64,000 nucleotides of DNA from NCBI RefSeq assembly GCF_014334335.1, contig NZ_JACSEU010000001.1, forward strand, positions 372,001 to 436,000, read 5' to 3'. Below are positions 1,716-56,657 of the stretch, one piece after another. Position 1 is the first letter of the stretch; every line of letters starts with the position of its first letter. The notes under the pieces are model-generated. The model was not told where the DNA came from. It did no database searches and worked only from the letters and a program-made list of their open reading frames with translations. The position numbers were made by a program, and so were the translations under genes. Source of the stretch: Treponema sp. Marseille-Q3903. Lineage in GTDB: Bacteria > Spirochaetota > Spirochaetia > Treponematales > Treponemataceae.

Positions 1716-1728
1716 GGTGGCTGGCGTC

Positions 1729-25898: not shown

Positions 25899-25910
25899 CG
25901 GGAGCAAATC

Positions 25911-26795: not shown

Positions 26796-26807
26796 TAGGA
26801 GTAAATA

Positions 26808-28500: not shown

Positions 28501-28502
28501 CG

Positions 28503-29720: not shown

Positions 29721-29732
29721 AAGGGGAATAAA

Positions 29733-40364: not shown

Positions 40365-41219
40365 CTAGTAATTGTTGATTGTTTTGCCTGTCCAAGTCTT
40401 TTTGAATTCATCGCCGGCAGCTTTTATCACTTCTTCCATTTTATCCGTGAGGTGTTTTGCAGCGATTGCTTCAGGCAATGTTTTATAATCTGCAATTGGA
40501 ATTTCAGGGAGAATTTTGAAATCGAAATAATATCTTTCAACATGATTGTAAGACCACAGAGGATCGTGTTTGCCGAGCCCGTATTTGTCTGAGCCGCCTA
40601 TGAACAACGGAAGAATGTCGCAATCTGTATAGAGTGCAATTCGAGCAGCCCCTTTCTTATATTTTACATATCCGTGTCGCGGCGTTCGAGTTCCTGCAGG
40701 AAATATTATAACATTGCATCCTTTATCTGTGAGTTTTTTACATTCATCACATATGTCGTCAAAATTTGATGTATTTGTGATGTAAGCCTGTTTGATCACT
40801 CCGGCTAGAGGTGTTTTTGTAAGCCCCCCGCGGACAATGCATGTAGAATTCGGGACAAGTGACATTATGTATACAAAATCTATCAATGATGGATGATTTG
40901 CTACGATTATTTTGCTGTGGATATTTTTATAAGCCTGTTTATCTTCTACGTTGAGTTTTGAGATTCCCAAAAAATCAAAAAATCCTAAAAAATTTCTGAA
41001 TGTGTGCGAGATGTATGAACGCGCTACAATGCCAAACTCATTTTTTTTTAAATTAAACAATCTGATAACTGGAAATGCAAAAAGTGCGAGGAACACAGCT
41101 CCTACTCCAAAAAAAACTATCGAAAGCACTTTTATAAGGCAACACAAATGATATCCAAAAAAATTTTTTATTTTTGGGATATCATCATGATTGTAAAGTT
41201 CGTAAAACTCTTTTTTCAT
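40365..41219 (-). CDS. Lysophospholipid acyltransferase (PlsC-like, APE-cluster associated)
   Basis: A 284-residue membrane-bound acyltransferase of the 1-acylglycerol-3-phosphate family. The N-terminus has a hydrophobic segment (about residues 27-55). Catalytic motif I is NHPSLID (His109, Asp114) and motif III is FPAGTRT (173-179). It lies nine bases downstream of the chain-length-factor gene on the same strand, in divergent orientation to the polyketide operon. Related acyltransferases occur in aryl-polyene clusters and may attach the polyene acyl chain or make the lipid anchor. A general phospholipid role cannot be excluded. Confidence 0.85.
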   Translation of the reverse strand: MKKEFYELYNHDDIPKIKNFFGYHLCCLIKVLSIVFFGVGAVFLALFAFPVIRLFNLKKNEFGIVARSYISHTFRNFLGFFDFLGISKLNVEDKQAYKNIHSKIIVANHPSLIDFVYIMSLVPNSTCIVRGGLTKTPLAGVIKQAYITNTSNFDDICDECKKLTDKGCNVIIFPAGTRTPRHGYVKYKKGAARIALYTDCDILPLFIGGSDKYGLGKHDPLWSYNHVERYYFDFKILPEIPIADYKTLPEAIAAKHLTDKMEEVIKAAGDEFKKTWTGKTINNY

Positions 41220-41228
41220 AAAAATATC

Positions 41229-41894
41229 CTATCTTAACAGCAATTTGAGGAATTCAACAGGAGATTTGCTTACATTTGAAAAGTCGTCAAACGTTACACA
41301 ATTTGATTTTTTTTCTGAGCTTACGATGCACGCAAACGCCATCGGGATATTTTCTTCAGGGCGTTTATCTCCGTAGAATTCAGGGACAAGTTCATCTGCA
41401 TATACGAGGATGATTTCTTTTTCTGTTCCGGCTAGGACAGGTGCGACGGCTGTTTTAAAAGCTTCTGCAAAATCGTTGTCGGCAGGAAAGATAACCGAAT
41501 AACCGCCTTTTAATCCGAACGCGAGTGTCGACGAAGAGATTGGAGTGTTAAAGACAGAAAGTGAAAAACTCGCAGGCAAAACAGATGCGCTTTCTATAAG
41601 ATCTTTTGCAACTTGAAACTGACGAACAATTTCTCCGCGAAAAGAAATAAAAACTAATTTCGTATCTTTATCTATGCGAGTTTTTTCAAGGATATCGTGG
41701 ACAACGTGAATCGTCATTTTTGTAATCTGGCTGAGACGCCTCCTGAACAAAGGTGACGTGTATTCTAATTTTGGAGATTCATTTGCCAATTCGATTTTTG
41801 ATGAACACGTATCGTTTGCCCAGTCCTGCCATGCCTTTTTATCGTCGCCAAGTCCCGGTGCCCATGCAGTTACATCAGAAAGATTTAATGTCAT
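41229..41894 (-). CDS. Beta-ketoacyl synthase-like chain-length factor (Ketoacyl-synt_2 type)
   Basis: About 221 residues from the ATG at 41894, which has GAAGG close upstream. A TTG at 41924 would add ten residues. The start MTLNLSDVTAWAPGLGD, then SPLFRRRLSQITKM and PASFSLSVFNTPISSS, match the short ketosynthase-like proteins (PF13723) of aryl-polyene clusters. No active-site Cys is at the expected place (SVFNTP), so it should not condense by itself; it is expected to pair with a ketosynthase and set chain length. Followed by the acyltransferase gene and divergent from the carrier-protein operon. Confidence 0.75.
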   Translation of the reverse strand: MTLNLSDVTAWAPGLGDDKKAWQDWANDTCSSKIELANESPKLEYTSPLFRRRLSQITKMTIHVVHDILEKTRIDKDTKLVFISFRGEIVRQFQVAKDLIESASVLPASFSLSVFNTPISSSTLAFGLKGGYSVIFPADNDFAEAFKTAVAPVLAGTEKEIILVYADELVPEFYGDKRPEENIPMAFACIVSSEKKSNCVTFDDFSNVSKSPVEFLKLLLR

Positions 41895-42004
41895 AATACC
41901 TTCGTCAATATATTTTGGTTTCAATCTATAATAGATTTGCTAATTTTTCAAGATAAACGGATTGCTGCAAAATTCCGTTGCCTATACTGATAAATGATAT
42001 ACGC

Positions 42005-42033
42005 TTGCACAATGTCGGCTTATTTTATAAAAT
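42005..42033 (+). promoter_or_regulatory. Possible promoter of the polyketide operon
   Basis: TTGCAC (42005-42010), 17-base spacer and TAAAAT (42028-42033). This gives a leader of about 30 bases containing the AGGAAG ribosome binding site of the first carrier-protein gene. The -35 match is weak. Confidence 0.35.
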
Positions 42034-42069
42034 AAACGAAAATTTATTAACATTGATAGGAAGTCTGTT

Positions 42070-42327
42070 ATGGATGATCTAAAACAACAGATAAAAGAAA
42101 TAATTATCTCTTCTCTGGAAATTGAAGATTTGAGTCCTGAAGATATTGTAGATTCGGAACCGTTGTTTGGAGAAGGCTTGGGGCTCGATTCTATTGACGC
42201 ATTGGAGCTTGGCGTCGCTTTGAAAAAGAAATTCGGAATTAAATTTTCATCTAAAAGTGATGATAATAAAAAATATTTTGCATCTATTGATGCACTAGCT
42301 GAATATATTTCGGCAAACAAGCAATAA
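42070..42327 (+). CDS. Acyl carrier protein 1 of the APE-type cluster
   Basis: An 85-residue acidic carrier protein. The 4'-phosphopantetheine attachment Ser41 lies in GLGLDSIDALEL. AGGAAG precedes the ATG. In aryl-polyene systems one carrier (ApeE) holds the starter and growing chain. It is followed three bases later by a second carrier-protein frame. Which of the two is the ApeE or ApeF counterpart is judged only from gene order. Confidence 0.88.
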   Translation: MDDLKQQIKEIIISSLEIEDLSPEDIVDSEPLFGEGLGLDSIDALELGVALKKKFGIKFSSKSDDNKKYFASIDALAEYISANKQ

Positions 42328-42342
42328 TAAATGGAGAGTTTT

Positions 42343-42594
42343 ATGTCTAAAGATGAAATTTTTGATAAGGTAAAGAATATTCTTATTTCAGAGTTTGAAA
42401 TCGATGAAAAAGACATTACTCCTGATGCGCTTCTCGGAGACGATCTTGACCTCGACTCGATAGATTCTATAGACCTTATCGTGAAGATGAAAGAATTTAT
42501 GCCGGCAGATAAAGGCAACGTAGATCCTTCAATCTTCAAAACTGTAAAAACTTTGCAGGATGTAGTAGACGCTCTTGTCCCTTATATGGCTTAG
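42343..42594 (+). CDS. Acyl carrier protein 2 of the APE-type cluster
   Basis: An 83-residue carrier protein starting MSKDEIFDKV, with Ser39 in DLDLDSIDSIDL as the phosphopantetheine site. An in-frame ATG at 42331 would add four residues, but GGAG lies at 42333-42336, which supports the ATG at 42343. Tandem carrier proteins are typical of aryl-polyene clusters. Confidence 0.88.
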   Translation: MSKDEIFDKVKNILISEFEIDEKDITPDALLGDDLDLDSIDSIDLIVKMKEFMPADKGNVDPSIFKTVKTLQDVVDALVPYMA

Positions 42595-42611
42595 GCTTGA
42601 TAAAGAGATTG

Positions 42612-44603
42612 ATGAAAAGAATTCTTAAAGCCTTATTTTATGTAATGGCGGCAGTTTATCCAATCCTTATATTTACATTGCTTGTGATTTTTAAAGTAGA
42701 TATAAGAATTTTGTCGCTGTGCATCATATTTTTAGGTGTCGTATTCTTTTTGAGTGCTACAGGAAATAAAAAGAGCGGAGAAAAAAAAGAACTGCTTGAT
42801 TGGAAACCTTTCTTAAGTTCTGCGCTTCTTCTCTCTGCGGGGTTGTTTTGTTTTATAACGGGAAAAGAGCTTTTTTTAAAGTTATATCCTGTAGTTGTAA
42901 ATGTAATTTTTCTTTTTGTATTTGGAAGCACTCTGTTTTTAGGGCCTTCAATAGTTTTCCGGTTTGCAACTCTCGCCGACAAATCGATTTTGAACTCCCC
43001 TTATGAGAGTCAGGTCAGACGATATTGCAGAAAAGTCACTGTGATATGGTGCTGCTTTTTTATATTTAATGGAAGCGTTGCCTGCTATACGACTTTCTTT
43101 TGCTCTAAAGAGATGTGGGCTTTATATAACGGCGGAATATCTTATGTGCTCATGGGCTTTTTATTCGCCGGTGAATTTATAATCAGAAAATTGGAGAATA
43201 AAAAAATGGTGAAGCAATATTCTATTGCAAAATTTAACTCAAAATCACGACAAGATGATTACGTGATGAGTTATGACGGAATTTGGTCTGAAAAACTTTA
43301 CAAAACATGGAAAGATTTTTTGATTGATTGTGCAAAAATCAGAAGATATCTACAAGGACAGTCTGCGAACGACTATGTTTTGCATTGCGAAGACAATTGG
43401 TATTTCCTTTGCACATTTGTAGCTCTCCTTCAGTCTAAAAAGAACGTTTACATAACGCAGACTATTTCCGAATCGTATCTTTCTGAAATTTTAGACGACA
43501 ACACTGTTTTTCTTACAGACCAGGCTGCCGGTGGAGCTCTTGCAACTGCATTCGTTCCTGATTTGTTTGAAAAAACGGAAACTCCATCAGAGTTGGAAAT
43601 AAGGACGACTCCTCCAATCGACGAAACTGAAAATCACATTTACCTTTATACTTCAGGCAGCACAGGAAAGCCGAAAGCGATTTTGCATACTTTAAAAGAA
43701 ATTGAAGAAGATAATAAAACTGTAATTTCTATCTGGGGCGAGGAATACAGCAAACGCAAACTTATCACAACTGTGAGCCAGCACCACATTTACGGTCTTT
43801 ACTGGTGCATCTGCCTTCCTTTTACGATAGGAGTTCCATTCCGCCGCCGCAGGATTGAATTTCCATCAGAATTTGAAAAACTCACCGACACTTCTTATGT
43901 TTTGGTTTCAACTCCAGCGTTTATTAAAAGAACGGTAGAAACTGAGGAAAAACTCGACATGAAAGACATATTCATCTCCACAAGCGGTGGTGCACTTTCT
44001 GAAGATTTGGCAGTAAAAGCGGAAAAAGTTTTTGGATTTTGTCCGGTGGAAGGGTATGGTTCAACAGAGACTTCCGGAGTTGCATACAGACAGCAGAGCA
44101 GAGACGGACTTTGGCTTACGCCTTATGATTGTTGCAAAATTTCTGTAAATGAAAACGGCTGTTTACACGTCATCTCTCCGTTTATAAAAGACCCTAAAGG
44201 TGTTTCTACCGCAGACCTCGCTGAAATTCGCGAAGACGGAAAATTCCTTATAAAAGGGCGTTCTGATTCAATCGTAAAAATTGAAGAAAAGCGAATTTCA
44301 ATGACAGAAGTTGAAAACAGGCTTTATGAATCGGGATTTGTTGAAGACGCATCTGTTGTAGCGCTTTCTAACAATGTTCGCCAGTATCTTGCCGCTGTAA
44401 TTGTATTAAATGCCGGAGGAAAAAAGAAATTCGAAAATCAGGAAAAATTGGCAATCAACAGATATTTCCACGACTTTTTGATGAAATATTTTGAAAATGT
44501 TGTGATTCCTAAAAAATGGCGTTTTGTTGAAAAAATCCCAAAAGATGTTCAAGGCAAAAAACAAAAACTGGAAATTATGGAAATGTTTGAAGGAAAAAAA
44601 TGA
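42612..44603 (+). CDS. Fusion of a COG4648 membrane domain with an acyl/aryl-ACP ligase (ApeG-ApeH-like)
   Basis: About 663 residues from the ATG at 42612 (AAAGAG upstream; a TTG at 42597 is also in frame; residue numbers here count from that TTG). Residues 1-~200 have five or six hydrophobic helices and resemble COG4648 membrane proteins (YCRKVTVIWCCFFIFNGS, then WALYNGGISYVLMGFLFAGE). Residues ~225-668 are an adenylate-forming ligase with A3 YTSGSTGKPKA (351-361), A5 GYGSTETSG (486-494) and the C-terminal catalytic-Lys region PKDVQGKKQK. In known aryl-polyene clusters these are two adjacent genes; here they are one polypeptide. It should activate the starter or a fatty acid and load it on a carrier protein. 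Confidence 0.85.
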   Translation: MKRILKALFYVMAAVYPILIFTLLVIFKVDIRILSLCIIFLGVVFFLSATGNKKSGEKKELLDWKPFLSSALLLSAGLFCFITGKELFLKLYPVVVNVIFLFVFGSTLFLGPSIVFRFATLADKSILNSPYESQVRRYCRKVTVIWCCFFIFNGSVACYTTFFCSKEMWALYNGGISYVLMGFLFAGEFIIRKLENKKMVKQYSIAKFNSKSRQDDYVMSYDGIWSEKLYKTWKDFLIDCAKIRRYLQGQSANDYVLHCEDNWYFLCTFVALLQSKKNVYITQTISESYLSEILDDNTVFLTDQAAGGALATAFVPDLFEKTETPSELEIRTTPPIDETENHIYLYTSGSTGKPKAILHTLKEIEEDNKTVISIWGEEYSKRKLITTVSQHHIYGLYWCICLPFTIGVPFRRRRIEFPSEFEKLTDTSYVLVSTPAFIKRTVETEEKLDMKDIFISTSGGALSEDLAVKAEKVFGFCPVEGYGSTETSGVAYRQQSRDGLWLTPYDCCKISVNENGCLHVISPFIKDPKGVSTADLAEIREDGKFLIKGRSDSIVKIEEKRISMTEVENRLYESGFVEDASVVALSNNVRQYLAAVIVLNAGGKKKFENQEKLAINRYFHDFLMKYFENVVIPKKWRFVEKIPKDVQGKKQKLEIMEMFEGKK

Positions 44604-44977
44604 AAGAAATTAATTTTCACAGCATTGAAAACGAAAAAGTGATATCGAGAGAAGAAGATAACGTTTGTTTGGAATTTTTGATTCCTTCGACAAGCGATTT
44701 TTTTGATGGGCATTTTCCTCAATACAAACTACTCCCTGCTGTAGCTCAGTTTGAAGTTATCACACGGTTTTCGCGTAAATATTTGGGAACGCAGCGTTAT
44801 GTCCCGAATATCAAAAGGGTAAAGTTTTCTGCGCCAATCAGACCGGATACTAGAATAATCTTGGAGTTGGCTAAAAGTGCAGCAAAAGAGACTGTCACTT
44901 TTAAAATGGCAGATGCCGACGCTGAAGGTAAAGTTTACTCTTCGGGTTCATTTAAATATTTGGACGAGCAGCGATGA
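44600..44977 (+). CDS. Hotdog-fold thioester dehydratase (ApeI-like)
   Basis: A 125-residue FabA/FabZ-like hotdog protein. The motif FFDGHFPQYKLLPAVAQFEV is the active-site helix with His in GHFP, as in 3-hydroxyacyl-ACP dehydratases. It overlaps both neighbours by four bases (ATGA at both ends), indicating tight translational coupling. One of two dehydratases in the cluster; together with the ketosynthases and reductase it would create the conjugated double bonds. Confidence 0.82.
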   Translation: MKEINFHSIENEKVISREEDNVCLEFLIPSTSDFFDGHFPQYKLLPAVAQFEVITRFSRKYLGTQRYVPNIKRVKFSAPIRPDTRIILELAKSAAKETVTFKMADADAEGKVYSSGSFKYLDEQR

Positions 44978-45726
44978 ATCTCTGTTTTGTAATTCCTGTC
45001 TATAGACACGGTTCTACAGTTGAATCTGTCGTTCAGAGTTTACTAAAATATAATTACCCGATTATTGTTGTAGATGACGGAAATGACGAAATTAATAGAG
45101 TTCGAATCAACGAGGTTGCAGAAAAATATCCTGATGTTATAACTTTAGTCACACGTGCTAAAAACGGCGGAAAAGGCAAAGCGATGACCGACGGTATTTT
45201 GAAAGCCAGTGAAATGGGAATTACACATGTTTTTCAGATTGATTCCGACGGTCAGCATGATGCAGAGAGAGCAGGGGTCTTTATTGAAAAATCTAAAAAA
45301 CATCCTGAAGCAATTATATGCGGATTCCCAGAATATGAACGGTCTGCCCCTAAAAATAGAGTAAACGGACGAAAGTTTGCGAACGGCTGGATTCATTTTG
45401 TTACAATGTCAAAAGATATCAAAGATGCGATGATTGGATTTAGGATATATCCTGTTGAACAGTATTTGAGAGTGCTGAAAAAGTCGTTGTATATAGATTC
45501 AAGAATGGGTTGTGACATCGATATCCTTGTAAGAATGCACTGGTTTGGGGTTCCTGTAATTTCAGAGTCGGTAAAAGTTTCGTATCCAAAAGATGGAATT
45601 TCAAATTACAGATATGTTAGAGATACGTTGAGAATTTCGGGGACTTATGCGCGGCTGTGTATAGGTATGATTTTGCGCTTGCCTCATCTTGTAGCTAGAA
45701 AAATTAAAAAATCTCTAAAGAGGTGA
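44974..45726 (+). CDS. Family 2 glycosyltransferase (ApeJ N-terminal-like)
   Basis: A 250-residue GT-A transferase starting NLCFVIPVYRHGSTVESVVQ, with nucleotide-binding DDG (IVVDDGNDE) and metal-binding DSDGQHD; later IYPVEQYLRVLKK and GCDIDILVRMHW. No transmembrane helix except weak hydrophobicity near the end. The start overlaps the preceding stop (ATGA). In other aryl-polyene clusters this domain is found as, or next to, the acyltransferase encoded by the next gene. It probably adds a sugar to the polyene lipid. Confidence 0.87.
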   Translation: MNLCFVIPVYRHGSTVESVVQSLLKYNYPIIVVDDGNDEINRVRINEVAEKYPDVITLVTRAKNGGKGKAMTDGILKASEMGITHVFQIDSDGQHDAERAGVFIEKSKKHPEAIICGFPEYERSAPKNRVNGRKFANGWIHFVTMSKDIKDAMIGFRIYPVEQYLRVLKKSLYIDSRMGCDIDILVRMHWFGVPVISESVKVSYPKDGISNYRYVRDTLRISGTYARLCIGMILRLPHLVARKIKKSLKR

Positions 45727-46691
45727 ACTGTGGGATTTTTTTTATGAAAGAAGAAGATTTACATTGGGCTGATGAAAAAGAAGCCATAAAAACAAACAAG
45801 CCTCTTTTACTTGTTTTGAAGATGATGAACTTTATCCCATCGTTCATTATTCGCTGCCTTGTTTTTCCTGTAAGTTTTTTTTATCTGATTTTTTCATCGA
45901 GGGCTAGGAAAGAATCGGTCAGATACCAGAAGCAGTTGAGAAAATTTACAGGCGGAAAAGTCCCTTTTAGAATTAGTTCTTACCGTCAAATTGTCTCGTT
46001 TTCTTTAAGTGTTTTTGAAAAAATGGAAGGCTGGCTCGGCAAAGTAGAGCCTTCAAGGGTTCAACTTCAAAATGACTCTCTGAACGAAATGCTTGAAGAC
46101 TTAAAGAGCGGAAAAGGGGCGGTTGCACTTACCGCTCATTTTGGAAATATGGAGCTGATGCGCGCAATTTCAAATGTCCCCGTATACGCTGTGATGAACG
46201 TAAAAGTCGGCAAACAGTTTACAGATACGCTTAAAATGATAAACCCCAATTCCATAGTAAACGTGATTGATTCTGATTCTGTCGGACCAGATACAATGGT
46301 GTTTTTGATAGATGAAATAGAAAAAGGAGCGCTCGTAGTTTCGACAGGAGACAGACCGTCAGCGAATGCTCGTGAACGCATATTAAAATATCCTTTTCTC
46401 GGCAAAGATGCAGAGTTTCCTTATGGCGTATTTTTGATGGTTGCGCTTTTGAAGAAACCCGTATATTACATGTTCGGTTTTAGAGAGCGATTTTCGATTT
46501 TTAATTCAAATTACAAACTTTACGTAGAAAAATCAAAGATTGATTTTAATTGCCGGCGTGCTGAGCGCGAAGAGCGCATAAATCAGTGCTGTAAAGAGTT
46601 TGTTGAAAAGTTAGAAAAGTTTTGTCTGTTATATCCGTATCAGTGGTATAACTTCCATAATTTTTGGAAACTTCAAAATGAAGAATCTTAG
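45723..46691 (+). CDS. LpxL/HtrB-like lipid acyltransferase (ApeJ C-terminal-like)
   Basis: About 322 residues from a GTG that overlaps the preceding stop (GTGA); an ATG at 45744 gives a form seven residues shorter. LpxL-like signs: LHWADEKEA near the N-terminus, a hydrophobic segment at ~residues 30-55, and the catalytic HFGNMELM (H-x4-E) around residue 140, followed by GDRPSANARERILKYPFLG. The family transfers acyl chains to lipid acceptors at the inner membrane. Here it could attach the polyene acyl chain. No spirochaetal lipid A role is implied. Confidence 0.83.
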   Translation: MNCGIFFMKEEDLHWADEKEAIKTNKPLLLVLKMMNFIPSFIIRCLVFPVSFFYLIFSSRARKESVRYQKQLRKFTGGKVPFRISSYRQIVSFSLSVFEKMEGWLGKVEPSRVQLQNDSLNEMLEDLKSGKGAVALTAHFGNMELMRAISNVPVYAVMNVKVGKQFTDTLKMINPNSIVNVIDSDSVGPDTMVFLIDEIEKGALVVSTGDRPSANARERILKYPFLGKDAEFPYGVFLMVALLKKPVYYMFGFRERFSIFNSNYKLYVEKSKIDFNCRRAEREERINQCCKEFVEKLEKFCLLYPYQWYNFHNFWKLQNEES

Positions 46692-46702
46692 AGGAATCTT
46701 AA

Positions 46703-47317
46703 ATGAAAAAAAATAAAACAGTATTATTTGGTGCTCTTGTTTTATCATTATTTTTTGCACAAAATCTGTCTGCTATTTCTTTTGAAGACATCTGCTCAGG
46801 ACTTTCCAAAAGGGCAAATACAATCGGAGAATTTACGCAGACAAAAAAAATCAATTCAAATGGCAGACAGCTGAAATCTTCAGGCGTTTATATAATCTGC
46901 CCCGATGGAATCATGTGGAAAACTCTAAAACCGTTTCCCTTAAAACTCGTTCTGACAAAAACTCAGATGATTCAAACAAGTGCCGATGGAAGAAAATCCG
47001 TGATAAACGGCGCTGAAAATCAAGTTTTTAAAAACATCTCTTCGATTTTGAGTTCTGTTTTTTCCGGCGACAGCGAACAACTGAAAAACAACTTTGAAAC
47101 AGAGTTTTTCCTCGTTGATGACGGCTGGAGAATTGAACTTACTCCAAAAGATTCGACAATCGCTTCAGCAATGAAAAAATTGGTTCTTTCAGGCGAGGCT
47201 AAAGGCAAAGATGATGTTTCAATGAATCGCCTTGAGATTTTAGAGGCTTCAGACAATTCAATCGTATACGAATTTTCGAATCAGCGGTATCCGAAGGAAC
47301 TGACTTTAGATGAATAA
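46703..47317 (+). CDS. LolA-like periplasmic carrier protein (ApeL-like)
   Basis: A 204-residue exported protein: signal peptide MKKNKTVLFGALVLSLFFA with likely cleavage after NLSA. The body matches LolA-type folds (FEDICSGLSKRANTIGEFTQ; SGVYIICPDGIMWKTLKPFP). LolA-like proteins shuttle lipids or lipoproteins across the periplasm. GAGGA lies seven bases upstream. It overlaps the exporter gene by eight bases. In the cluster it should pass the polyene lipid from the exporter to the outer membrane. Confidence 0.82.
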   Translation: MKKNKTVLFGALVLSLFFAQNLSAISFEDICSGLSKRANTIGEFTQTKKINSNGRQLKSSGVYIICPDGIMWKTLKPFPLKLVLTKTQMIQTSADGRKSVINGAENQVFKNISSILSSVFSGDSEQLKNNFETEFFLVDDGWRIELTPKDSTIASAMKKLVLSGEAKGKDDVSMNRLEILEASDNSIVYEFSNQRYPKELTLDE

Positions 47318-49721
47318 ACTGCCCAATCCGAGAAAAAACAAAAATAATTTTTTTTTCACTTTATGGCTTATCTTTCATCTTGGGATTGTAGCCGCTTTTT
47401 TGCTTGTTTTTGCATTTTCTCGCGATAAACTCAAACTTGAGACAGATTTGTTTAATCTTATTCCAAAATCTCTGTCGCTCGAAAGCGTCCGCAAAGCTGA
47501 TGAAAAAATGCTCTCCAAGACAAGCCGGAACGTTTTTATACTTGTAGCGAACCGTGATTTTCAGTCTGCAAAAAATGTTGCCGAGAATATTTTCGAAGAG
47601 CTCAATTCCAGCGAAAATTTTGAATCTGTTTCGTTGTATAACGATATGGCTTTTATCTCAGATATAACAGATTTTTTGTTTAAGTACCGCTGGAATATGC
47701 TCGATCAAAAAACAATAGATTCAATCAACTCTGATGGCGGCGATTCTTTTGCACTTGGAGCTCTTTCAAAAGCATACAGTGGCTTTACAATGCTTCCATT
47801 GGACAACCTTGAGCTAGACCCTTTTTTGCTTGCAGAACACAATTTTTCTTCATATCTTTCTTCCGTGCAAAAATCGGGGACGGCAATGTCTCTTGTTGAT
47901 GGAGTGCTCGCTTCTCAATACGAAGGGGAATGGTACATCATGATTCGTGCCGTCTTGAGTAAAAAGGGGAGCGCTCTTGCAAGTAAAAAAAATGGAGTCA
48001 GCGAGATTTATTCCGCATGCAGGCGCTTTGAAAACTTAAACGGCGATTCTAGAGAAAAAACTCATTTTATATATTCTGGCGTCCCTTATCACAGCAGTCA
48101 AAGCTCAAATGCCGCTGCGCGCGAAATCTCAATAATCGCAACTATTTCTATGCTCGCCGTAATTGCGATTTTAATTTTAGTTTTCAAAAGTCCGAAACCT
48201 GTCATTTTCTCAGCAGGCTCAATTTTGATTTCAATTGTGGCGGCGTTTCTTGCGACTATTTCCGTCTTTCGAGAGATGCACATAATCACTTTGGTATTCG
48301 GAACTTCTCTGATAGGTTCGTGCATAGATTACAGCCTCCACTATTTTATTCACTGGGCAGGCAGCCTCTCTCTAAAAACAGGTTCCGATATCAGGGCAAA
48401 GCTCTTGCCTGAGCTCAGCATGGCAATTTGTTCAACAGGGATATGTTTTGCGGTGCTTTTGTTCGCTCCGTTTGCAATTCTCAAACAGATGTCACTTTTT
48501 TGCTTGACAGGGCTTTTGAGTTCATTCCTCACAACGATTGCAATTTATCCTAAAATAAAAACACCTGCCGGTGAACGAAAACTCCCTCTTGCAGACAAAT
48601 TCAGATTTTTTGTAGATAGAGCGCAGAATAAAACAGTCGGCAGAATTACAATCACAGCGCTTTTTGTTTTTTCTATTGCATCAATCATCGTATTTCATGG
48701 GAATATCCGCATCAAAAACAATATTTTATCGCTATATAAAATGCAGGGAAAACTCCTTGACGACGAGATAACCGCCGGTAAAATTATCAAATATAATCCG
48801 TCAGGCTGGTACATCGTTGGAGGAGAAACAGAGCAACAAGCTCTCGAAAATGAAGAGAACTTTCGTCATGCTTTTGAAGAAAAAACTTCCGGCAAAGCAG
48901 GCTACATGAGCACTTCTCTTTTTATTCCATCTATCGAACAGCAAAAAAAATCTCGATATGCATCAGAAAAACTGCTGAAACTCGCCGCTCATCAGTTGCA
49001 ATCGCTTGGCTATGAAAAGAAGTTTACCGAAAAATTGAAAGCTGATTTTGAACAAAGTGCAGGTGACTTCATTTCCTTTGCTGCCGGCAACGTTCCTGAA
49101 TTTATAACTTCTTCAATCTCTTCTGTATGGATTGGAGAAGTCGAAGGAAAGTATTATTCGGTTCTTTTGCCAAACAGCGTTGAAGATTATGAATTTTTTC
49201 GCTCGATTGCGGACGGTTTTGAAGACGTACACTTTGTAAGCAAATCGGCAGATGTGAGCCGAGACCTCGATAAACTCACTGTGATGGTCATTAAATTCTT
49301 TGTTGCAGCTTATATTTTGATGTTGATAATGCTTCGTTTTTTTTATTCATGGAAACAATCTTTGAAGATAATTTCCGTGCCGCTTTTAATTGTCCTAGTA
49401 ACTGTCGCTGTGTTTGGAATTGCAAAAATCAATCTGGAATTCTTTTCGGTGACTGGCTTGATTCTTGTTTTTGGGCTTGGGCTTGATTACATAATTTATA
49501 TGATAGAAAATGAAAAATCTATAGAAAAAGAAAAAATCCTTGAACCATTTGCGACTATGCTTTCATTTGTCACGACTGGGATTTCGTTCGGGGCGCTTGC
49601 TTTGAGTTCGTTTCAGCCTGTGCGTCTTATTGGACTGTCGATTTTTATCGGTTTGACAACTGCTTATTTGAGTTCTTTCTTTTATGCTAGAGATAACGGG
49701 TCTGCACAGGACTATAGATGA
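47310..49721 (+). CDS. MMPL/RND-superfamily exporter (ApeM-like)
   Basis: An 803-residue inner-membrane protein. One helix near the N-terminus (~residues 15-35) is followed by a periplasmic domain, then helices at about 265-400, a second periplasmic domain, and a final helical block from about 650. This is the two-repeat RND layout, close to YedE/COG4258 lipid exporters. It overlaps the LolA-like gene. It should move the polyene lipid out of the inner membrane. Confidence 0.87.
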   Translation: MNKLPNPRKNKNNFFFTLWLIFHLGIVAAFLLVFAFSRDKLKLETDLFNLIPKSLSLESVRKADEKMLSKTSRNVFILVANRDFQSAKNVAENIFEELNSSENFESVSLYNDMAFISDITDFLFKYRWNMLDQKTIDSINSDGGDSFALGALSKAYSGFTMLPLDNLELDPFLLAEHNFSSYLSSVQKSGTAMSLVDGVLASQYEGEWYIMIRAVLSKKGSALASKKNGVSEIYSACRRFENLNGDSREKTHFIYSGVPYHSSQSSNAAAREISIIATISMLAVIAILILVFKSPKPVIFSAGSILISIVAAFLATISVFREMHIITLVFGTSLIGSCIDYSLHYFIHWAGSLSLKTGSDIRAKLLPELSMAICSTGICFAVLLFAPFAILKQMSLFCLTGLLSSFLTTIAIYPKIKTPAGERKLPLADKFRFFVDRAQNKTVGRITITALFVFSIASIIVFHGNIRIKNNILSLYKMQGKLLDDEITAGKIIKYNPSGWYIVGGETEQQALENEENFRHAFEEKTSGKAGYMSTSLFIPSIEQQKKSRYASEKLLKLAAHQLQSLGYEKKFTEKLKADFEQSAGDFISFAAGNVPEFITSSISSVWIGEVEGKYYSVLLPNSVEDYEFFRSIADGFEDVHFVSKSADVSRDLDKLTVMVIKFFVAAYILMLIMLRFFYSWKQSLKIISVPLLIVLVTVAVFGIAKINLEFFSVTGLILVFGLGLDYIIYMIENEKSIEKEKILEPFATMLSFVTTGISFGALALSSFQPVRLIGLSIFIGLTTAYLSSFFYARDNGSAQDYR

Positions 49722-49773
49722 AAGATTTTTTTGCAGTGTTTTATATTTAAATGTTTTCTAAAGAGAGGTTTCG

Positions 49774-50358
49774 ATGAAAAAATATATAAAGAATTTTCTG
49801 CCACTATCAGTTTTTATCATTTTGTATTTTTCCGCCTGTCAGACATCAAAAAACTTGACTTCGGCGCTGAACCCTGTCTATGTGACAAATTCTAAATCAA
49901 TTCAGCTTCTTTCAACGGAAAATATAGAGTGTACAAAAGATTCTATGCAACAGATTTTTGGAGAATTTGGAGGACAAAGTTTTTCGTTTTTAGCATATTT
50001 TCATGCCGACAAAAAAGCTCTTCAGCTTTCTCTTATCAGTGCGATGGGAACGGATTTGGGCAGCCTTGAATACGATGGTGATACTGCGAGCTTTTCATCT
50101 GGGATGATTTTTGGCAAGATAAAACCTGAATACATAATTGCAGACATCCAAAACGCTTATTACACATCTGACAGTTTGAAAAAAAATTACGAAAAATCCG
50201 GCATATTATTTGAAGAAGAGCTCAGCGAAAATGGAAAGATAAGAAAAATAATCAGCGGAAAAGACGTTGTAGAACAGATAACAATAAGCAAAAACAATGT
50301 GACAATTGAAAATTTTTTGAGGGGATATATATATCACATTACAGAAATTGAAGAATAA
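49774..50358 (+). CDS. Small outer-membrane lipoprotein (ApeN/DUF3261-like)
   Basis: A 194-residue lipoprotein: MKKYIKNFLPLSVFIILYF signal and lipobox FSAC. The body is beta-rich with GEFGGQSFSFLAYFHADKKA and resembles the small lipoproteins (DUF3261) next to MMPL exporters in aryl-polyene clusters. GAGAGG precedes the ATG. By position it may accept cargo from the LolA-like carrier, as LolB does for LolA. Assigned mainly by context and layout. Confidence 0.65.
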   Translation: MKKYIKNFLPLSVFIILYFSACQTSKNLTSALNPVYVTNSKSIQLLSTENIECTKDSMQQIFGEFGGQSFSFLAYFHADKKALQLSLISAMGTDLGSLEYDGDTASFSSGMIFGKIKPEYIIADIQNAYYTSDSLKKNYEKSGILFEEELSENGKIRKIISGKDVVEQITISKNNVTIENFLRGYIYHITEIEE

Positions 50359-50412
50359 GCTGTGCGTGGTTTTCAAAAATGAAGGAATTCAGTAAGATAA
50401 GGTTTACTTAGT

Positions 50413-51585
50413 ATGAATATTTATATTTCAAAGCCCGGCGTAATGACAGCTGCCGGTGTTACAATCGATGAATTATGGGATTCTGTCGTTGCCGGCAATC
50501 AGAGCGTGATAAAAAGAGTGAAAGCATGTAACGGAGTTGATTTTTTTGCAGCGAAAATAGATGAAGAAAAATTGAAGAGTGCATCTGAAAACAACTCTCG
50601 AATTTTGCAGATTGAGCAAGGTGCATTGAATCAGGTTTCTGATGATATTGAAATTGTAAAATCTAAATACGGTTCAGAACGTGTAGCCGTATGTATAGGT
50701 TCGTGCGACAACGGCGAAGAGCAATCAATCTCCGCTGACAGAGTGTACCTCGAAACTCAAAAATTCCCTGAAGATTTTACTCTCGAAGTTCAAAGCGCAA
50801 GTTATGTTGCAAAATACATTGCAGCCAGATATGGTCTGAAAGGTCCTGCAAATACGTTCAGCACGGCATGTTCTTCAAGTGCCGGTGCAATTATCAAAGG
50901 GGCGGAGCTCATCCTTGCGGGGCTTGTTGACGCTGTAGTAGTCGGCGGAGTAGATGCCTCTTCCGATACTGTCCTTGTAGGTTTTAATGCCCTTGAAGCC
51001 GTTTCTCCTGAAATTACAAACCCTTTGAGTAAAAACAGGCACGGGATCACTCTTGGCGAAGGTGCATCATTTTTTATTTTGACAAAAGAACCTATTCGCC
51101 CAGATGACAATATTCAATTGCTCGGTTGGGGAGAGAGTTCCGATGCATATCACATGACTTCTCCCGACCCAAGCGGTGAAGGAGCTATAAAAGCAATCAG
51201 ACGTGCGATTGAAAGCGCAAAAATATCTCCGAAAGATGTTGATTATATAAATATGCACGGGACAGGAACAAAGTTGAACGATAGCATGGAATCTATTGCA
51301 ATCGATAAAATATTTGGCGATTATAAGGTTCCTGTGAGCTCAACAAAACCGGTGACGGGACATACGCTCGGCGCTGCGGCTGCTGTAGAGGCGGCTATTT
51401 GCTATAAAGCGATAAATAATGTAGCATTACCTGTGCATGTGTGGGATAAAGAATATGATCCTGAGCTTCCGAATCTCAACATCGTAGAAAAAAACTATTC
51501 AGCAAATAAGAAGATTAAAATTTGTCTTTCGAATTCGTTTGCTTTTGGCGGGGCAAATGCCTGCCTTGCGATTGGAATCAGATAG
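50413..51585 (+). CDS. Beta-ketoacyl-ACP synthase (ApeO-like ketosynthase)
   Basis: A 390-residue thiolase-fold condensing enzyme with an intact catalytic triad: Cys153 in STACSSSAGA, His282 in MHGTGT and His317 in VTGHTLGAAA; C-terminal NSFAFGGANA is the glycine-rich loop. It performs decarboxylative condensation with malonyl-ACP. Only a weak AAGG lies upstream of the ATG. It is one of two active ketosynthases in the cluster; one of them should pair with the chain-length factor encoded upstream. Confidence 0.92.
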   Translation: MNIYISKPGVMTAAGVTIDELWDSVVAGNQSVIKRVKACNGVDFFAAKIDEEKLKSASENNSRILQIEQGALNQVSDDIEIVKSKYGSERVAVCIGSCDNGEEQSISADRVYLETQKFPEDFTLEVQSASYVAKYIAARYGLKGPANTFSTACSSSAGAIIKGAELILAGLVDAVVVGGVDASSDTVLVGFNALEAVSPEITNPLSKNRHGITLGEGASFFILTKEPIRPDDNIQLLGWGESSDAYHMTSPDPSGEGAIKAIRRAIESAKISPKDVDYINMHGTGTKLNDSMESIAIDKIFGDYKVPVSSTKPVTGHTLGAAAAVEAAICYKAINNVALPVHVWDKEYDPELPNLNIVEKNYSANKKIKICLSNSFAFGGANACLAIGIR

Positions 51586-51593
51586 GGGTTTTT

Positions 51594-52079
51594 ATGGAAA
51601 TTCAACAGCATATTGAGCGCGACGAGCTGATAAATTACTTGCCTCACAAAGGGAAGATGTTTTTGCTATCACGTGTCACTCAGCATGATATTGAAAAACA
51701 CACAATTACATGTGAATATGATATCACAGAAGATTGTATTTTCTATGAATCGGAATTTGACGGAGTTCCAACTTGGGCAGGTTTTGAATTTATGGCGCAG
51801 GGAGTTTCTGCACTGACGGGAATCACAAACACAATAAAAAGAATCTCGCCGCTACCAGGCTTTATACTTTCTGTAATGGAATTCAATGCAAGCGTCGGTT
51901 ATCTCAAAAACAACACAACAATTCAGATGAAGACAGTTGAAGATTTTAGAGATGAGGAAAATCACATATACAGATATATCTGTGAACTATATGCAAATAA
52001 AGGAGATGCGGCTCCTGTTGTGACAACGAAAGTGTCAGTTATGGAAACAGAAGATGCGCACGCATTATTTGGAGATTGA
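51594..52079 (+). CDS. 3-hydroxyacyl-ACP dehydratase, hotdog fold (ApeP-like)
   Basis: About 161 residues. The frame opens at 51522 within the ketosynthase gene, but the ATG at 51594 has AGGGG five bases upstream and gives the family N-terminus ending in INYLPHKGKMFLLSRV (PHxxxM-x-LL). DGVPTWAGFEFMAQGVSAL forms the active-site helix region. It is the second dehydratase of the cluster. Confidence 0.82.
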   Translation: MEIQQHIERDELINYLPHKGKMFLLSRVTQHDIEKHTITCEYDITEDCIFYESEFDGVPTWAGFEFMAQGVSALTGITNTIKRISPLPGFILSVMEFNASVGYLKNNTTIQMKTVEDFRDEENHIYRYICELYANKGDAAPVVTTKVSVMETEDAHALFGD

Positions 52080-52141
52080 TAAAAAAGATTATTGGATGAA
52101 CATACGGCAGTGTGAATCTTTCATGAAGCAAGGAGAATAAA

Positions 52142-52894
52142 ATGGAAAATCAAAATGCAGACAAAAAAGTATTGGTAACAGGAGCAAGCGGCGGCATCGG
52201 TCGCGCAATTGCAGTTGAAGCCGGAAAAGCCGGATATTATGTAATTTGCCATTACAATGGAAATAAGGCAAACGCCGAAGAAACTTTTGCACAGATAAAA
52301 GCAAATGGCGGCAGCGGTGAAATCATTCAATTCGATGTTTCAAACCGCGAAGATTGTAAAGCAAAACTCTCCGAAATGGCAAAAAATTATGGCGCACTAT
52401 GGGGAATTGTGAACAACGCCGGTGTTACACGTGACAATGCATTTGTCGCAATGAGCGGTGAAGATTGGGATAAGGTTATCCACACAAATCTCGATAGCTT
52501 TTACAACGTAATCAATCCGCTTTTAATGCCGATGGCAAGCCGCAAAAACAAACGAGGTGGTCGTATCATCACAGTGTCTTCTGTAAGCGGTGTAGACGGA
52601 AACAGAGGACAGACAAATTACAGTGCTTCAAAGGCCGGTATCATCGGTGCTACAAAAGCACTTGCTGTTGAACTTGCAGGACGCGGAATCACATGTAATG
52701 CAATTGCTCCGGGCGTAATAGACACTGATATGACAAAAGCAATCATCCCTGAAGCTTACGAAATGATTATGAAAGCAATTCCGATGGGCCGCGCAGGAAA
52801 ACCTGAAGAAATCGCTGCGGCAGTCGTTTTTCTGCTTTCTGAAGGCGCTGCGTATATCACTCGTCAAGTTATTGAAATAGATGGCGGAATGTAA
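52142..52894 (+). CDS. 3-oxoacyl-ACP reductase, FabG-like (ApeQ-like)
   Basis: A 250-residue short-chain dehydrogenase using NADPH to reduce 3-ketoacyl-ACP. TGASGGIGRA (13-22) is the nucleotide site, NNAG (91-94) the structural motif, and Ser147, Tyr160 (YSASK) and Lys164 the catalytic residues. AAGGAG lies eight bases before the ATG. Its place between the dehydratase and second ketosynthase indicates a dedicated role in polyene synthesis. Confidence 0.93.
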   Translation: MENQNADKKVLVTGASGGIGRAIAVEAGKAGYYVICHYNGNKANAEETFAQIKANGGSGEIIQFDVSNREDCKAKLSEMAKNYGALWGIVNNAGVTRDNAFVAMSGEDWDKVIHTNLDSFYNVINPLLMPMASRKNKRGGRIITVSSVSGVDGNRGQTNYSASKAGIIGATKALAVELAGRGITCNAIAPGVIDTDMTKAIIPEAYEMIMKAIPMGRAGKPEEIAAAVVFLLSEGAAYITRQVIEIDGGM

Positions 52895-52972
52895 TCAAAA
52901 AAACACACGGTAATGTGCGGAGCGTTTTAATCTGAACATAAATTTCAAAAAATTGGTTTGAGGATAAATATT

Positions 52973-54241
52973 ATGGAATTTACTAAACCTAATGGGAAAC
53001 GCCGTGTTGTTGTTACAGGCGGCGGAATGGTAAGCGCACTTGGTCGCGATTGGGACACGGCATTCAAAAATCTTAAATCATATAAAAACAAAATACGATA
53101 TATGCCGGAATGGGAACGCTATACTAAAATGAATACCCGTTTGGCGTGCCCTTATGATGAACCGCTCCCTTCTTTTCCACGAAAAAAAATACGGGGTATG
53201 GGCAGAGTCGCGATGCTTGGACTTTTGGCTACAACAGATGCCTTGAAAATGGCAGGCTGTCTGACAGAAGACGGCGAAGATGTTGTAGAAGAACTTAAAA
53301 ACGGGCTCACAGGTATTGCATACGGAACTTGCATGGGAAGCATGGATGCTATCGGAGACCTCGCAAAAATGGTTGAGACAGGTGACTCCTCTCATCTGAA
53401 CAGCCAAACTTACATAAAAGCAATGCCGCAGACAAACGCATGTAACATGAGCGTTTATTGGCAGATTCGCGGTCGTGTAATCATCACTGATACCGCTTGT
53501 ACATCAGGTTCTCAGTCAATCGGATATGCGTATGAAGCGATTGAAGACGGACGTCAGGAAATGATGATTGCAGGCGGTGCTGAAGAACTCTCGGCTCCAG
53601 ATGCAGCAATTTTTGACACGCTTGGAGCAACTTCTGTTATGAACAAAACACCTGGTGAAACTCCAAAGTGCTTTGATAAAGACCGCGATGGACTTGTAAT
53701 TGGAGAAGGTGCCGGAACACTTATTTTGGAAGATTTGGAACACGCAGTTAAGCGCGGTGCAAAAATCTACGCAGAGATTGCCGGTTTTGCTACAAATTCC
53801 GATGGTTCACATATCACTTCTCCTAATGAAGAAACTCAGGCTCGTTGTCTTGAAATGGCAATTGCAGATGCAGGCATTTCAAAAGAGCAGATCGCTTATG
53901 TAAACGCTCACGGAACAGGAACCCCTCACGGAGATATAACGGAAACTCAGGCTGTTTATAAAGTTTTCAATCGAGTAATTCCTATTTCTACGACAAAAAG
54001 TTACATCGGGCATATTCTCGGTGCATGTGGCGCTGTAGAGGCTTGGCTTACAATCAACATGATGAACGAATCATGGTTCCATCCGAACTTGAATTTGCAC
54101 AATGTTGACCCGGAATGCGGACATTTGGATTATATAAGAGACGAAGGTCGTAAAATTGATTGCGAATATGTCATGTCAAACAACTTCGCTTTTGGCGGCG
54201 TGAACACATCTTTGATTTTTAAGAAATGGCATGAGCAGTAA
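52973..54241 (+). CDS. Beta-ketoacyl-ACP synthase II-like (ApeR-like ketosynthase)
   Basis: 422 residues from the ATG at 52973, which has GAGGA eight bases upstream (a TTG at 52958 is also in frame). Catalytic Cys176 in DTACTSGSQS, His313 in AHGTGTPHG and His347 in YIGHILGACG are all present. The N-terminus GKRRVVVTGGGMVSALGRDW is FabF-like. This gene closes the cluster; no strong terminator follows. Confidence 0.92.
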   Translation: MEFTKPNGKRRVVVTGGGMVSALGRDWDTAFKNLKSYKNKIRYMPEWERYTKMNTRLACPYDEPLPSFPRKKIRGMGRVAMLGLLATTDALKMAGCLTEDGEDVVEELKNGLTGIAYGTCMGSMDAIGDLAKMVETGDSSHLNSQTYIKAMPQTNACNMSVYWQIRGRVIITDTACTSGSQSIGYAYEAIEDGRQEMMIAGGAEELSAPDAAIFDTLGATSVMNKTPGETPKCFDKDRDGLVIGEGAGTLILEDLEHAVKRGAKIYAEIAGFATNSDGSHITSPNEETQARCLEMAIADAGISKEQIAYVNAHGTGTPHGDITETQAVYKVFNRVIPISTTKSYIGHILGACGAVEAWLTINMMNESWFHPNLNLHNVDPECGHLDYIRDEGRKIDCEYVMSNNFAFGGVNTSLIFKKWHEQ

Positions 54242-55856: not shown

Positions 55857-56657
55857 ATGACAGAAGAATTAAAACTACATCTGATTGAACTCGCAGACAA
55901 ATACGAAAATACCTCATTTCCAGATTCCGATCCGTCTCAATTTCTGCGCTGGTTTGATATAAAAAATGATGGTGTTACAGCTGTAGAATGCGCTTCTTTT
56001 ATCGCTGCAATGCTCGCTTTTGGAAATCGTAAACAGTTTATTCCAAAAATAAAGCAGATTTTGCAGATGTCACAGGAAATGCCGACAGATCCGGCTCTAT
56101 CAAAAGGGCAAGTTTTTATTGAATGGCTCAAATCGAATTCTCCCAATTTTGGCACCGGCAAAAAAAAGTTTTATCGTTTTTATTCCTACGATGATATGCG
56201 CGATTTGTTTAGTGAATTGGGAGAAATTGTAACAAAATATGTTTCTTTAGGAGAAGCTGTCAGACAACAATTGGATTTTTTGAACTGCAATTTAAGCGAG
56301 AAAAAACCTTTTAATGTTGCGGACGCTCTTTCTTCTCTGTTTCCAAAATCAGCGATAGTCCCAAAGGGTCGCTCGAGTGCCAACAAGCGCATTCACATGT
56401 ATCTTCGCTGGATGGTACGTATGAATTCTCCTGTTGACCTTGGGCTATGGAAGTGGGCAAATCCTGCCGAGTTGTTGATACCTCTTGATGTTCACGTGAT
56501 GCAGGAAGCTGTAAAGTTAGGGCTTTTGTCGCATGGCGTAAATGCAAGCCGAAAAACCGCAGAAAAATTGACCGAAAAACTGCGCATCGCATTCCCAAAA
56601 GATCCTTGCCGCGCAGACTACTCTCTGTTCGGGCTCGGAGTCGATGAAAAAGTTTGA
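55857..56657 (+). CDS. TIGR02757 (DUF2400) family protein
   Basis: A 266-residue protein starting directly after the preceding stop. Recognised by VECASFIAAMLAFGNRKQF, then RWMVRMNSPVDLGLWKW and IPLDVHVMQEAVKLGLL. The helical layout with LDVHV and a late Asp/Cys-containing segment (FPKDPCRADYSLFGLG) recalls HhH-type DNA glycosylases, but that is inference. No function is assigned. Confidence 0.87.
   Translation: MTEELKLHLIELADKYENTSFPDSDPSQFLRWFDIKNDGVTAVECASFIAAMLAFGNRKQFIPKIKQILQMSQEMPTDPALSKGQVFIEWLKSNSPNFGTGKKKFYRFYSYDDMRDLFSELGEIVTKYVSLGEAVRQQLDFLNCNLSEKKPFNVADALSSLFPKSAIVPKGRSSANKRIHMYLRWMVRMNSPVDLGLWKWANPAELLIPLDVHVMQEAVKLGLLSHGVNASRKTAEKLTEKLRIAFPKDPCRADYSLFGLGVDEKV

What the first reader, a model, noticed from the sequence alone, without database searches (positions are those of the whole stretch)
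40365..54241. Near-complete aryl-polyene-type type II polyketide cluster in a spirochaete-like genome
Sequence shows, in one 14-kb block: two carrier proteins, an AMP-ligase with a membrane domain, two hotdog dehydratases, a glycosyltransferase, an LpxL-like acyltransferase, a LolA-like protein, an MMPL exporter, a small lipoprotein, two ketosynthases with intact Cys-His-His, a FabG-like reductase, and a divergent chain-length factor and PlsC-like acyltransferase. From established knowledge this gene set matches aryl-polyene (APE) clusters described in Proteobacteria and Bacteroidetes. Inference: a polyene lipid in the outer membrane, perhaps antioxidant. APE clusters in spirochaetes are, as far as I know, little described.
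Basis: partly seen in the sequence, partly recalled or inferred. Interest (0 to 1): 0.85.

Follow-up and report, generated by a model that had tools for sequence, protein, structure and literature searches.

The report
Aryl-polyene pigment genes in a treponeme
A treponeme carries an intact set of genes for a yellow lipid pigment (an aryl polyene), a kind of cluster already catalogued in such bacteria, but no recognised gene for the aromatic building block from which the pigment starts was found in its genome.

Summary
Fifteen genes at 40365-54241 match 15 of the 18 genes of the E. coli CFT073 aryl-polyene (APE) cluster. From apeE to apeR the E. coli order is kept, except that apeK is absent, apeG-apeH are fused and apeJ is split. 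A tree puts both ketosynthases with APE enzymes, apart from FabB/FabF; the ligase was not put on a tree. The methyltransferase apeB and thioesterase apeK are missing. APE clusters in Treponema are not new: four papers list them from genome mining. In 274 genomes of the window's family (taken as Treponemataceae) the marker ApeR is over cut-off in 130. The less expected part is the starter acid. UbiC, which makes 4-hydroxybenzoate in E. coli, is over cut-off in 0 of 274. Instead 88 of the 130 carry an aromatic ammonia-lyase, within 20 kb of ApeR in 20; the 17 aligned resemble a tyrosine ammonia-lyase proven in Treponema socranskii. The window's genome has neither. Best reading: an ordinary APE pathway starting from p-coumarate or 4-hydroxybenzoate, here scavenged or made by an unrecognised enzyme. 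New member of a known kind.

The parts
40365..41219 (-). ApeD-like PlsC-type lysophospholipid acyltransferase (HPSLID at residue 109, an HX4D motif; motif name recalled)
   Evidence: PF01553 53 bits; ApeD E 8e-24; motif
41229..41894 (-). ApeC-like half-size chain-length factor; probable ATG start at 41894 (ORF opens with TTG at 41924)
   Evidence: PF13723 107.7 bits; ApeC E 8e-17; 6qsp_B E 1.1e-11; start read by eye
42070..42327 (+). ApeE acyl carrier protein, Ser41 in LDSID
   Evidence: NF006617 95.2 bits, cut-off 70; ApeE 50% identity
42331..42594 (+). ApeF acyl carrier protein, Ser43 in LDSID
   Evidence: NF003757 82.6 bits, cut-off 65; ApeF 44% identity
42597..44603 (+). ApeG-ApeH fusion: about five hydropathy-predicted membrane helices, then an AMP-forming acyl-ACP ligase
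   Evidence: ApeG E 5e-27 (residues 93-207), ApeH E 9e-47 (residues 244-665); helices; PF00501 and PF13193 over gathering, the latter by 1.8 bits
44600..44977 (+). ApeI-like hotdog dehydratase
   Evidence: PF22818 ApeI-like 33.3 bits, gathering 28.5; 6qsr_A E 2e-10
44974..45726 (+). Glycosyltransferase family 2, matching the N-terminal half of E. coli ApeJ
   Evidence: PF00535 58.8 bits; ApeJ residues 8-242 E 5e-59
45723..46691 (+). LpxL-like acyltransferase (HFGNME at residue 139), matching the C-terminal half of E. coli ApeJ
   Evidence: ApeJ residues 241-551 E 4e-41; PF03279 21.4 bits, just under gathering 22.3
46703..47317 (+). ApeL, LolA-like periplasmic carrier
   Evidence: PF03548 35.3 bits, gathering 23.6; LolA2_flexi 72.8 bits, below its cut-off of 125; ApeL E 5e-17
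47310..49721 (+). ApeM, RND/MMPL-family exporter, about 11 hydropathy-predicted membrane helices
   Evidence: ApeM E 2e-41; helices; PF03176 17.4 bits, below gathering 20.5
49774..50358 (+). ApeN, DUF3261 protein, lipobox-like FSAC at residue 19
   Evidence: PF11659 63.4 bits; ApeN E 6e-8; motif
50413..51585 (+). ApeO elongating ketosynthase, C153/H282/H317
   Evidence: ApeO 41% identity over 398 columns, FabF 37% over 267; 6qsp_A E 2e-78; tree; NF006618 399.7 bits, just under its cut-off 407
51594..52079 (+). ApeP-like hotdog dehydratase; probable ATG start at 51594
   Evidence: PF22817 25.9 bits, just under gathering 27; 6qsr_B top but weak; ApeP E 9e-6
52142..52894 (+). ApeQ ketoreductase (SSVSG at 146-150, Tyr160, Lys164)
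   Evidence: ApeQ 57% identity, FabG 43%; also over cut-off for a general FabG model, NF004200 341.6 of 273; motifs
52973..54241 (+). ApeR second ketosynthase, C181/H318/H352 (numbered from the TTG at 52958); probable ATG start at 52973
   Evidence: NF006587 598.9 bits, cut-off 470; ApeR 51% identity; 4ewg_A E 2.6e-139; tree
54375..56657 (+). Not part of the pathway: PRK13663 gene followed with no gap by a TIGR02757 gene. In relatives G088, G145 and G237 a tyrosine-ammonia-lyase-like gene follows PRK13663; in G088 it lies between PRK13663 and TIGR02757

Best explanation
The block encodes an aryl-polyene lipid pathway. Shown from sequence: APE-type carrier proteins, ligase, ketosynthases, chain-length factor, reductase, dehydratases, attachment enzymes and transport proteins, in APE order. 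Inferred by analogy with E. coli, Xenorhabdus and Acinetobacter: the ApeGH ligase loads an aromatic acid on ApeE; ApeR and ApeO-ApeC add malonyl units; ApeQ reduces and ApeI-ApeP dehydrate each round, leaving a conjugated polyene acid; ApeD and the two ApeJ parts attach it to a lipid; ApeM, ApeL and ApeN move it to the outer membrane. The head group is probably unmethylated, since no apeB was found. The starter is p-coumarate or 4-hydroxybenzoate (inferred). Most ApeR-positive relatives appear to make p-coumarate from tyrosine with an ammonia-lyase. In this genome neither that gene nor UbiC was found, so here the starter is either taken up or made by an enzyme not recognised.
For: All 15 proteins have an E. 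coli Ape protein of matching role as best hit, in conserved order from E to R. In an 82-row tree the window ApeO lies in a starred group with E. coli ApeO and the window ApeR in a starred group with E. coli ApeR; FabF, FabB and this genome's two FabF-type copies fall outside. Top solved structures for the five proteins tested are APE proteins (6qsp and 4ewg named so in PMC8358021; 6qsr recalled). Residues said there to hold the aryl head are kept: AbApeR Tyr135, Ala163, Phe202 correspond to Y152, A180, F219, and AbApeO Ala166, Phe205 to A152, F191 (read by eye). dN/dS against L006 is 0.03-0.17 in the 7 of 11 compared genes where it could be computed (four of the 15 genes are not in L006). Starter: UbiC over cut-off in 0 of 274 family genomes; PF00221 lyase in 88 of 130 ApeR-positive and 26 of 144 other genomes, within 20 kb of ApeR in 20 of the 88, inside the operon in G029, G031 and G037.
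Against: No product, expression or phenotype data. ApeP, ApeM and the acyltransferase half of ApeJ fall under their Pfam gathering scores, ApeO just under the NF006618 cut-off, and ApeQ also passes a general FabG model. The ligase's top NCBIfam hit is a long-chain fatty-acid ligase model, far below cut-off (95.5 of 476), and the ligase was not put on a tree. apeB, apeK and any recognised starter enzyme were not found in the genome, so the pathway may be conditional or decaying. 'APE-positive' relatives are defined by ApeR alone; the fetched stretches show ApeO in 86 and ApeGH in 38 of 130 genomes, partly because contigs or stretches end. The lyase link is not corrected for kinship, and the label needs 25 changes on the ApeR tree. 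dS is near saturation, so dN/dS is rough.
Confidence: 0.9

Rival explanations
1. A flexirubin-type pathway: tyrosine-derived p-coumaroyl starter and a polyene esterified to a dialkylresorcinol, as in Bacteroidetes.
For: Two window proteins hit flexirubin models (LolA2_flexi 72.8 bits, FlxB 272.6 bits); relative G193 carries a FlxJ-family methyltransferase (444.9 bits) and the lyases of G037 and G090 hit the FlxA model; flexirubin synthesis starts with a tyrosine ammonia-lyase (PMC3992019).
Against: All these hits are below the models' cut-offs (125, 340, 560, 700). E. coli Ape proteins match in order. The genome was not searched for dialkylresorcinol genes.
Confidence: 0.04
2. A type II pathway with a non-aromatic starter, making a polyunsaturated or polyene fatty acid for membrane lipids.
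For: No recognised source of an aromatic starter found in this genome; the ligase's top NCBIfam hit is a long-chain fatty-acid ligase model, below cut-off (95.5 of 476).
Against: Head-group pocket residues kept; the ligase matches ApeH; relatives close to the window's ApeR carry an ammonia-lyase (13 of a starred set of 22).
Confidence: 0.05
3. A relic: the cluster is an APE cluster but no longer makes product in this strain because the starter gene was lost.
For: In G088, G145 and G237 the lyase follows PRK13663; in the window PRK13663 is followed at once by TIGR02757, and no lyase was found in the genome. apeB and apeK were not found either.
Against: Frames are open and the motifs checked are intact; low dN/dS; 21 of the 42 ApeR-positive genomes without a lyase are at least 90% complete (read; one of them, G176, has 8% contamination), so the state recurs. 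Loss and gain cannot be told apart on the unrooted tree.
Confidence: 0.12

Closest known systems
APE cluster of E. coli CFT073 (apeA-R)
   Same: 15 of 18 genes have a counterpart; apeE-F-G-H-I-J-L-M-N-O-P-Q-R are collinear
   Different: apeG-apeH fused, apeJ split, apeC-apeD on the other strand, apeA, apeB and apeK not found, no UbiC found in the genome
APE clusters of the window's family (taken as Treponemataceae)
   Same: ApeR over cut-off in 130 of 274 genomes; fused ApeGH and split ApeJ also in L123, L128 and L129
   Different: in the fetched stretches 42 of 130 genomes show an apeK-like and 18 an apeB-like ORF (stretches often cut); 88 of 130 have an aromatic ammonia-lyase somewhere
Flexirubin cluster of Chitinophaga pinensis
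   Same: aryl-polyene core; its start with tyrosine ammonia-lyase and 4-coumarate-CoA ligase resembles what most ApeR-positive relatives seem to do (PMC3992019, abstract and passages seen)
   Different: window proteins fall below flexirubin model cut-offs; no lyase found in this genome
Tyrosine ammonia-lyase of Treponema socranskii
   Same: shown to make p-coumarate from tyrosine, with a Phe-His selectivity pair (PMC8750797, passages seen); the 17 family lyases aligned here have Phe-His or Tyr-His at that site
   Different: no such gene found in this genome; whether T. socranskii has an APE cluster was not tested; a Tyr-His pair is not covered in the passages seen

Membership tests
Aryl-polyene cluster | ApeO ketosynthase with a half-size ApeC chain-length factor | tested here: met
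Aryl-polyene cluster | Second FabB-like ketosynthase ApeR | tested here: met
   598.9 bits, cut-off 470; tree
Aryl-polyene cluster | Two adjacent free carrier proteins ApeE and ApeF | tested here: met
Aryl-polyene cluster | ApeH-type acyl-ACP ligase | tested here: met
   E 9e-47 to ApeH, fused to ApeG; no ligase tree was made
[quoted passage not shown]
   ApeP is weak and ApeQ also passes a general FabG model
Aryl-polyene cluster | Attachment and transport genes D, J, L, M, N | tested here: met
   Pfam below gathering for M and the second half of J
Aryl-polyene cluster | Ketosynthases separate from primary FabB and FabF in a tree | tested here: met
   (quick tree, SH-aLRT support only)
Aryl-polyene cluster | Accessory head-group methyltransferase ApeB and thioesterase ApeK | tested here: not met
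   none in the block; own-genome best 15.9 bits against cut-off 560 for the methyltransferase; one remote thioesterase, 36% over 81 residues, elsewhere. E. coli lacking apeK keeps partial pigment; I treat both as accessory, not defining
Aryl-polyene cluster | Source of an aromatic starter acid in the genome | tested here: not met
   no UbiC, aromatic ammonia-lyase, Rv2949c-like or FkbO/Hyg5 chorismatase found; chorismate synthase is present. In E. coli this gene is outside the cluster, so it does not define the cluster
Aryl-polyene cluster | Aryl-polyene product | not testable with these tools
   needs cells and LC-MS
Flexirubin cluster | Curated flexirubin models over cut-off | tested here: not met
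   LolA2_flexi 72.8 of 125; FlxB 272.6 of 340
Flexirubin cluster | Dialkylresorcinol genes (DarA, DarB) | not tested
   the genome was not searched; the DarB hit in the block is the general ketosynthase match of ApeR, 19.6 of 550 bits
Primary fatty-acid synthase | Ketosynthases grouping with FabF or FabB | tested here: not met

The most novel reading that the evidence does not exclude
Treponemes of this family start their aryl polyenes with p-coumarate made from tyrosine instead of chorismate-derived 4-hydroxybenzoate, and several lineages, this one included, do without the tyrosine ammonia-lyase and live on phenolic acids released from plant material, so that their outer-membrane pigment depends on what the host eats. 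APE synthesis would then be a scavenging-dependent trait.
Probability: 0.3. Interest if true: 0.6.

Novelty: new member of a known kind. Interest (0 to 1): 0.38.

Why it matters
APE clusters are very common in Gram-negative bacteria, but the passages I read on spirochaetes give only genome predictions. The data here link lyases of the type proven in T. socranskii to APE genes across the family, a link I did not find in print (searches; the library lacks most subscription journals), and pose a directly testable question: where does the starter acid come from in the 42 of 130 ApeR-positive genomes in which no lyase was found.

Tried and rejected
UbiC, Rv2949c-like chorismate lyase, FkbO/Hyg5 chorismatase and aromatic ammonia-lyase as starter source in this genome: none found (the one chorismatase match has 11.7 bits against 325). 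The two weak UbiC matches in the family (G201, G131) are below cut-off and contain stops; one weak Rv2949c-like match (G012) is below cut-off.

A hydratase/aldolase next to the lyase, which would turn p-coumarate into 4-hydroxybenzoate, was looked for in two relatives; the neighbours scanned are a PrsW-type protease in G088 and a GNAT acetyltransferase and shikimate kinase in G145, so nothing supports it. A gene replacing the lyase in lyase-lacking clusters was looked for only by eye in the printed neighbourhoods; none stood out.

HutH as the explanation of the lyase signal: nine genomes with a match of 645 bits or more (eight of genus g15, and G033) were set apart as HutH-like by score, leaving 88 of 130 against 17 of 144. 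Two of them (G033, G039) also have a second lyase at 425-434 bits, so this step removes some that may not be HutH. Only two of the nine (L108, L109) were aligned; they have Ser-His and NKEDHVSMG instead.

ApeR cut-off: six genomes counted as negative have a truncated ApeR-like match; three carry a lyase (G093, G173, G231) and three do not (G028, G204, G212). Moving all six gives 91 of 136 against 23 of 138, the same picture.

Recent horizontal transfer: most of the block is like the rest of the window in G+C, but the bin 52001-54000 (apeQ-apeR) is the highest in the window, 0.435. The treponeme ApeO rows form one starred group of 12; the ApeR rows group with a Kiritimatiellae row among them, so direction was not settled. 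Structure prediction and fold search were not used.

Full report
What is there. The block 40365-54241 holds 15 open genes. Two, a PlsC-like acyltransferase and a half-size ketosynthase-like protein, run on the minus strand; thirteen run on the plus strand with overlaps or short gaps. Family searches and a comparison with the 18 Ape proteins of E. coli CFT073 plus FabF, FabB, FabG and AcpP give each of the 15 proteins an Ape protein of matching role as best match.

Which organism. I therefore take the window's family as Treponemataceae; this is inference.

Is it an APE set and not fatty-acid synthase? In an 82-row tree (quick method, SH-aLRT support only) the window ApeO falls with E. coli ApeO in a starred group and the window ApeR with E. 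coli ApeR in another; E. coli FabF and FabB and this genome's own two FabF-type copies fall outside. The ligase was not put on a tree. Five proteins were compared with solved structures and in each the top match is an APE protein (6qsp and 4ewg are named so in PMC8358021, while 6qsr is recalled), although for ApeP the match is weak (E 0.0075). Residues that PMC8358021 (introduction, and the first of two parts of the results) places around the aryl head are kept (read by eye). Carrier serines, ketosynthase triads, reductase Tyr and Lys, acyltransferase and ligase motifs are in place. Against this: ApeP, ApeM and the acyltransferase half of ApeJ fall under Pfam gathering scores, ApeO is just under one NCBIfam cut-off (399.7 of 407), ApeQ also passes a general FabG model, and the ligase's top NCBIfam hit is a long-chain fatty-acid ligase model far below cut-off. 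dN/dS against L006 is 0.03 to 0.17 in the 7 of 11 compared genes where it could be computed; in four dS was saturated, and four genes are not in L006.

What is missing. There is no apeA, which is dispensable for pigment in E. coli. There is no apeB methyltransferase in the block, and the genome's best match to the FlxJ-family methyltransferase model is 15.9 bits against a cut-off of 560. There is no apeK; the only relative found in the genome is a remote thioesterase elsewhere. In E. coli loss of apeK causes only partial loss of pigment.

The starter. In E. coli 4-hydroxybenzoate comes from UbiC. The window's genome (2.51 Mb, 4 contigs, 98.66% complete) has chorismate synthase and one phosphopantetheinyl transferase match, but no UbiC, aromatic ammonia-lyase or Rv2949c-like chorismate lyase was found, and for FkbO/Hyg5 chorismatase only a match of 11.7 bits against 325.

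The family. ApeR (NF006587) is over cut-off in 130 of 274 genomes. I call these ApeR-positive; whether each has a whole cluster was not shown, and the stretches fetched around ApeR hold ApeO in 86 and ApeGH in 38 of the 130. UbiC is over cut-off in 0 of 274. An aromatic ammonia-lyase (PF00221) is present in 114 of 274: in 88 of the 130 and in 26 of the 144 others, or 17 of 144 once nine HutH-like genomes are set apart by score (Fisher p 4e-17 and 3e-22, not corrected for kinship). Of the 88, 25 have lyase and ApeR on one contig and 20 within 20 kb. In G029, G031 and G037 the lyase lies inside the cluster. Seventeen of the 88 lyases were aligned: all have Phe-His or Tyr-His at the selectivity site, and the 16 that reach that far have NQDKVSMG, whereas two HutH-like ones have Ser-His and NKEDHVSMG. 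The lyase of Treponema socranskii, with Phe-His there, was shown to be a tyrosine ammonia-lyase (PMC8750797, passages seen). p-Coumarate is what 4-hydroxybenzoate becomes after one round of elongation, reduction and dehydration (established chemistry), so it can replace it as a starter; flexirubin synthesis begins that way (PMC3992019, passages seen).

The own lineage. On a tree of the 130 ApeR proteins the lyase label needs 25 changes (FastTree), and the window row sits in a starred set of 22 rows, 13 with and 9 without the lyase. In G088, G145 and G237 the lyase follows directly after PRK13663; in G088 the next genes are a PrsW-type protease and TIGR02757. In the window the PRK13663 frame ends at 55856 and the TIGR02757 frame begins at 55857. 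So the site is there without the lyase; loss here or gain in the sisters cannot be told apart. Of the 42 ApeR-positive genomes without a lyase, 21 are at least 90% complete (read; G176 among them has 8% contamination), so incomplete assembly does not explain it all.

Mechanism. Shown: the genes, their order, kinship and motifs. Inferred from work in E. coli, Xenorhabdus and Acinetobacter: loading of the aryl acid on ApeE, elongation by ApeR and ApeO-ApeC, reduction and dehydration without enoyl reduction, attachment to a lipid by ApeD and the two ApeJ parts, export by ApeM, ApeL and ApeN. Protection from oxidative stress is known from E. coli (abstract) and is only a guess here.

Novelty. Papers already list APE clusters in Treponema_D (PMC8863827; PMC10904984 Table 2), Spirochaetota (PMC9177762) and oral Treponema (PMC8549736), all by genome mining; a swine-gut study reports a correlation of Treponema with arylpolyene clusters (PMC9964075). 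I saw passages of these, not whole papers. Searches for Treponema with tyrosine ammonia-lyase, and aryl polyene with tyrosine ammonia-lyase, returned two papers each; I opened one and saw the other three as listings, and none appeared to make the link proposed here. The library lacks most subscription journals, so this is weak evidence. I file the cluster as a new member of a known kind; the starter question is the part worth following.

Noticed in passing
L114 and L133 (relatives G051 and G052): The N-O-P-Q-R part of the APE cluster is interleaved in L114 with unrelated genes: a TrkH transporter, an MFS sugar transporter, a family 3 glycosidase, a choloylglycine-hydrolase-like protein and others; L133 has ORFs of the same sizes in the same order.
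   Followed up: partly
L117:12323-12589: A RelB-family antitoxin gene lies inside the APE operon of genome G037, next to the tyrosine-ammonia-lyase-like gene.
   Followed up: no
54375-55856: PRK13663, an NCBIfam 'hypothetical protein' family, lies in the fetched ApeR stretches of 11 relatives as well as next to ApeR in the window.
   Followed up: partly
7250-13381: A 2043-residue protein with bacterial Ig-like domains; two large neighbours at 1717-3459 and 3468-6470 match no Pfam family at E 1e-5.
   Followed up: no
24966-31202: Two genes scanned here, a binding-protein-dependent transporter component (24966-25898) and an alpha-amylase family protein (29733-31202), suggest a sugar-uptake region; the genes between were not scanned.
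   Followed up: no
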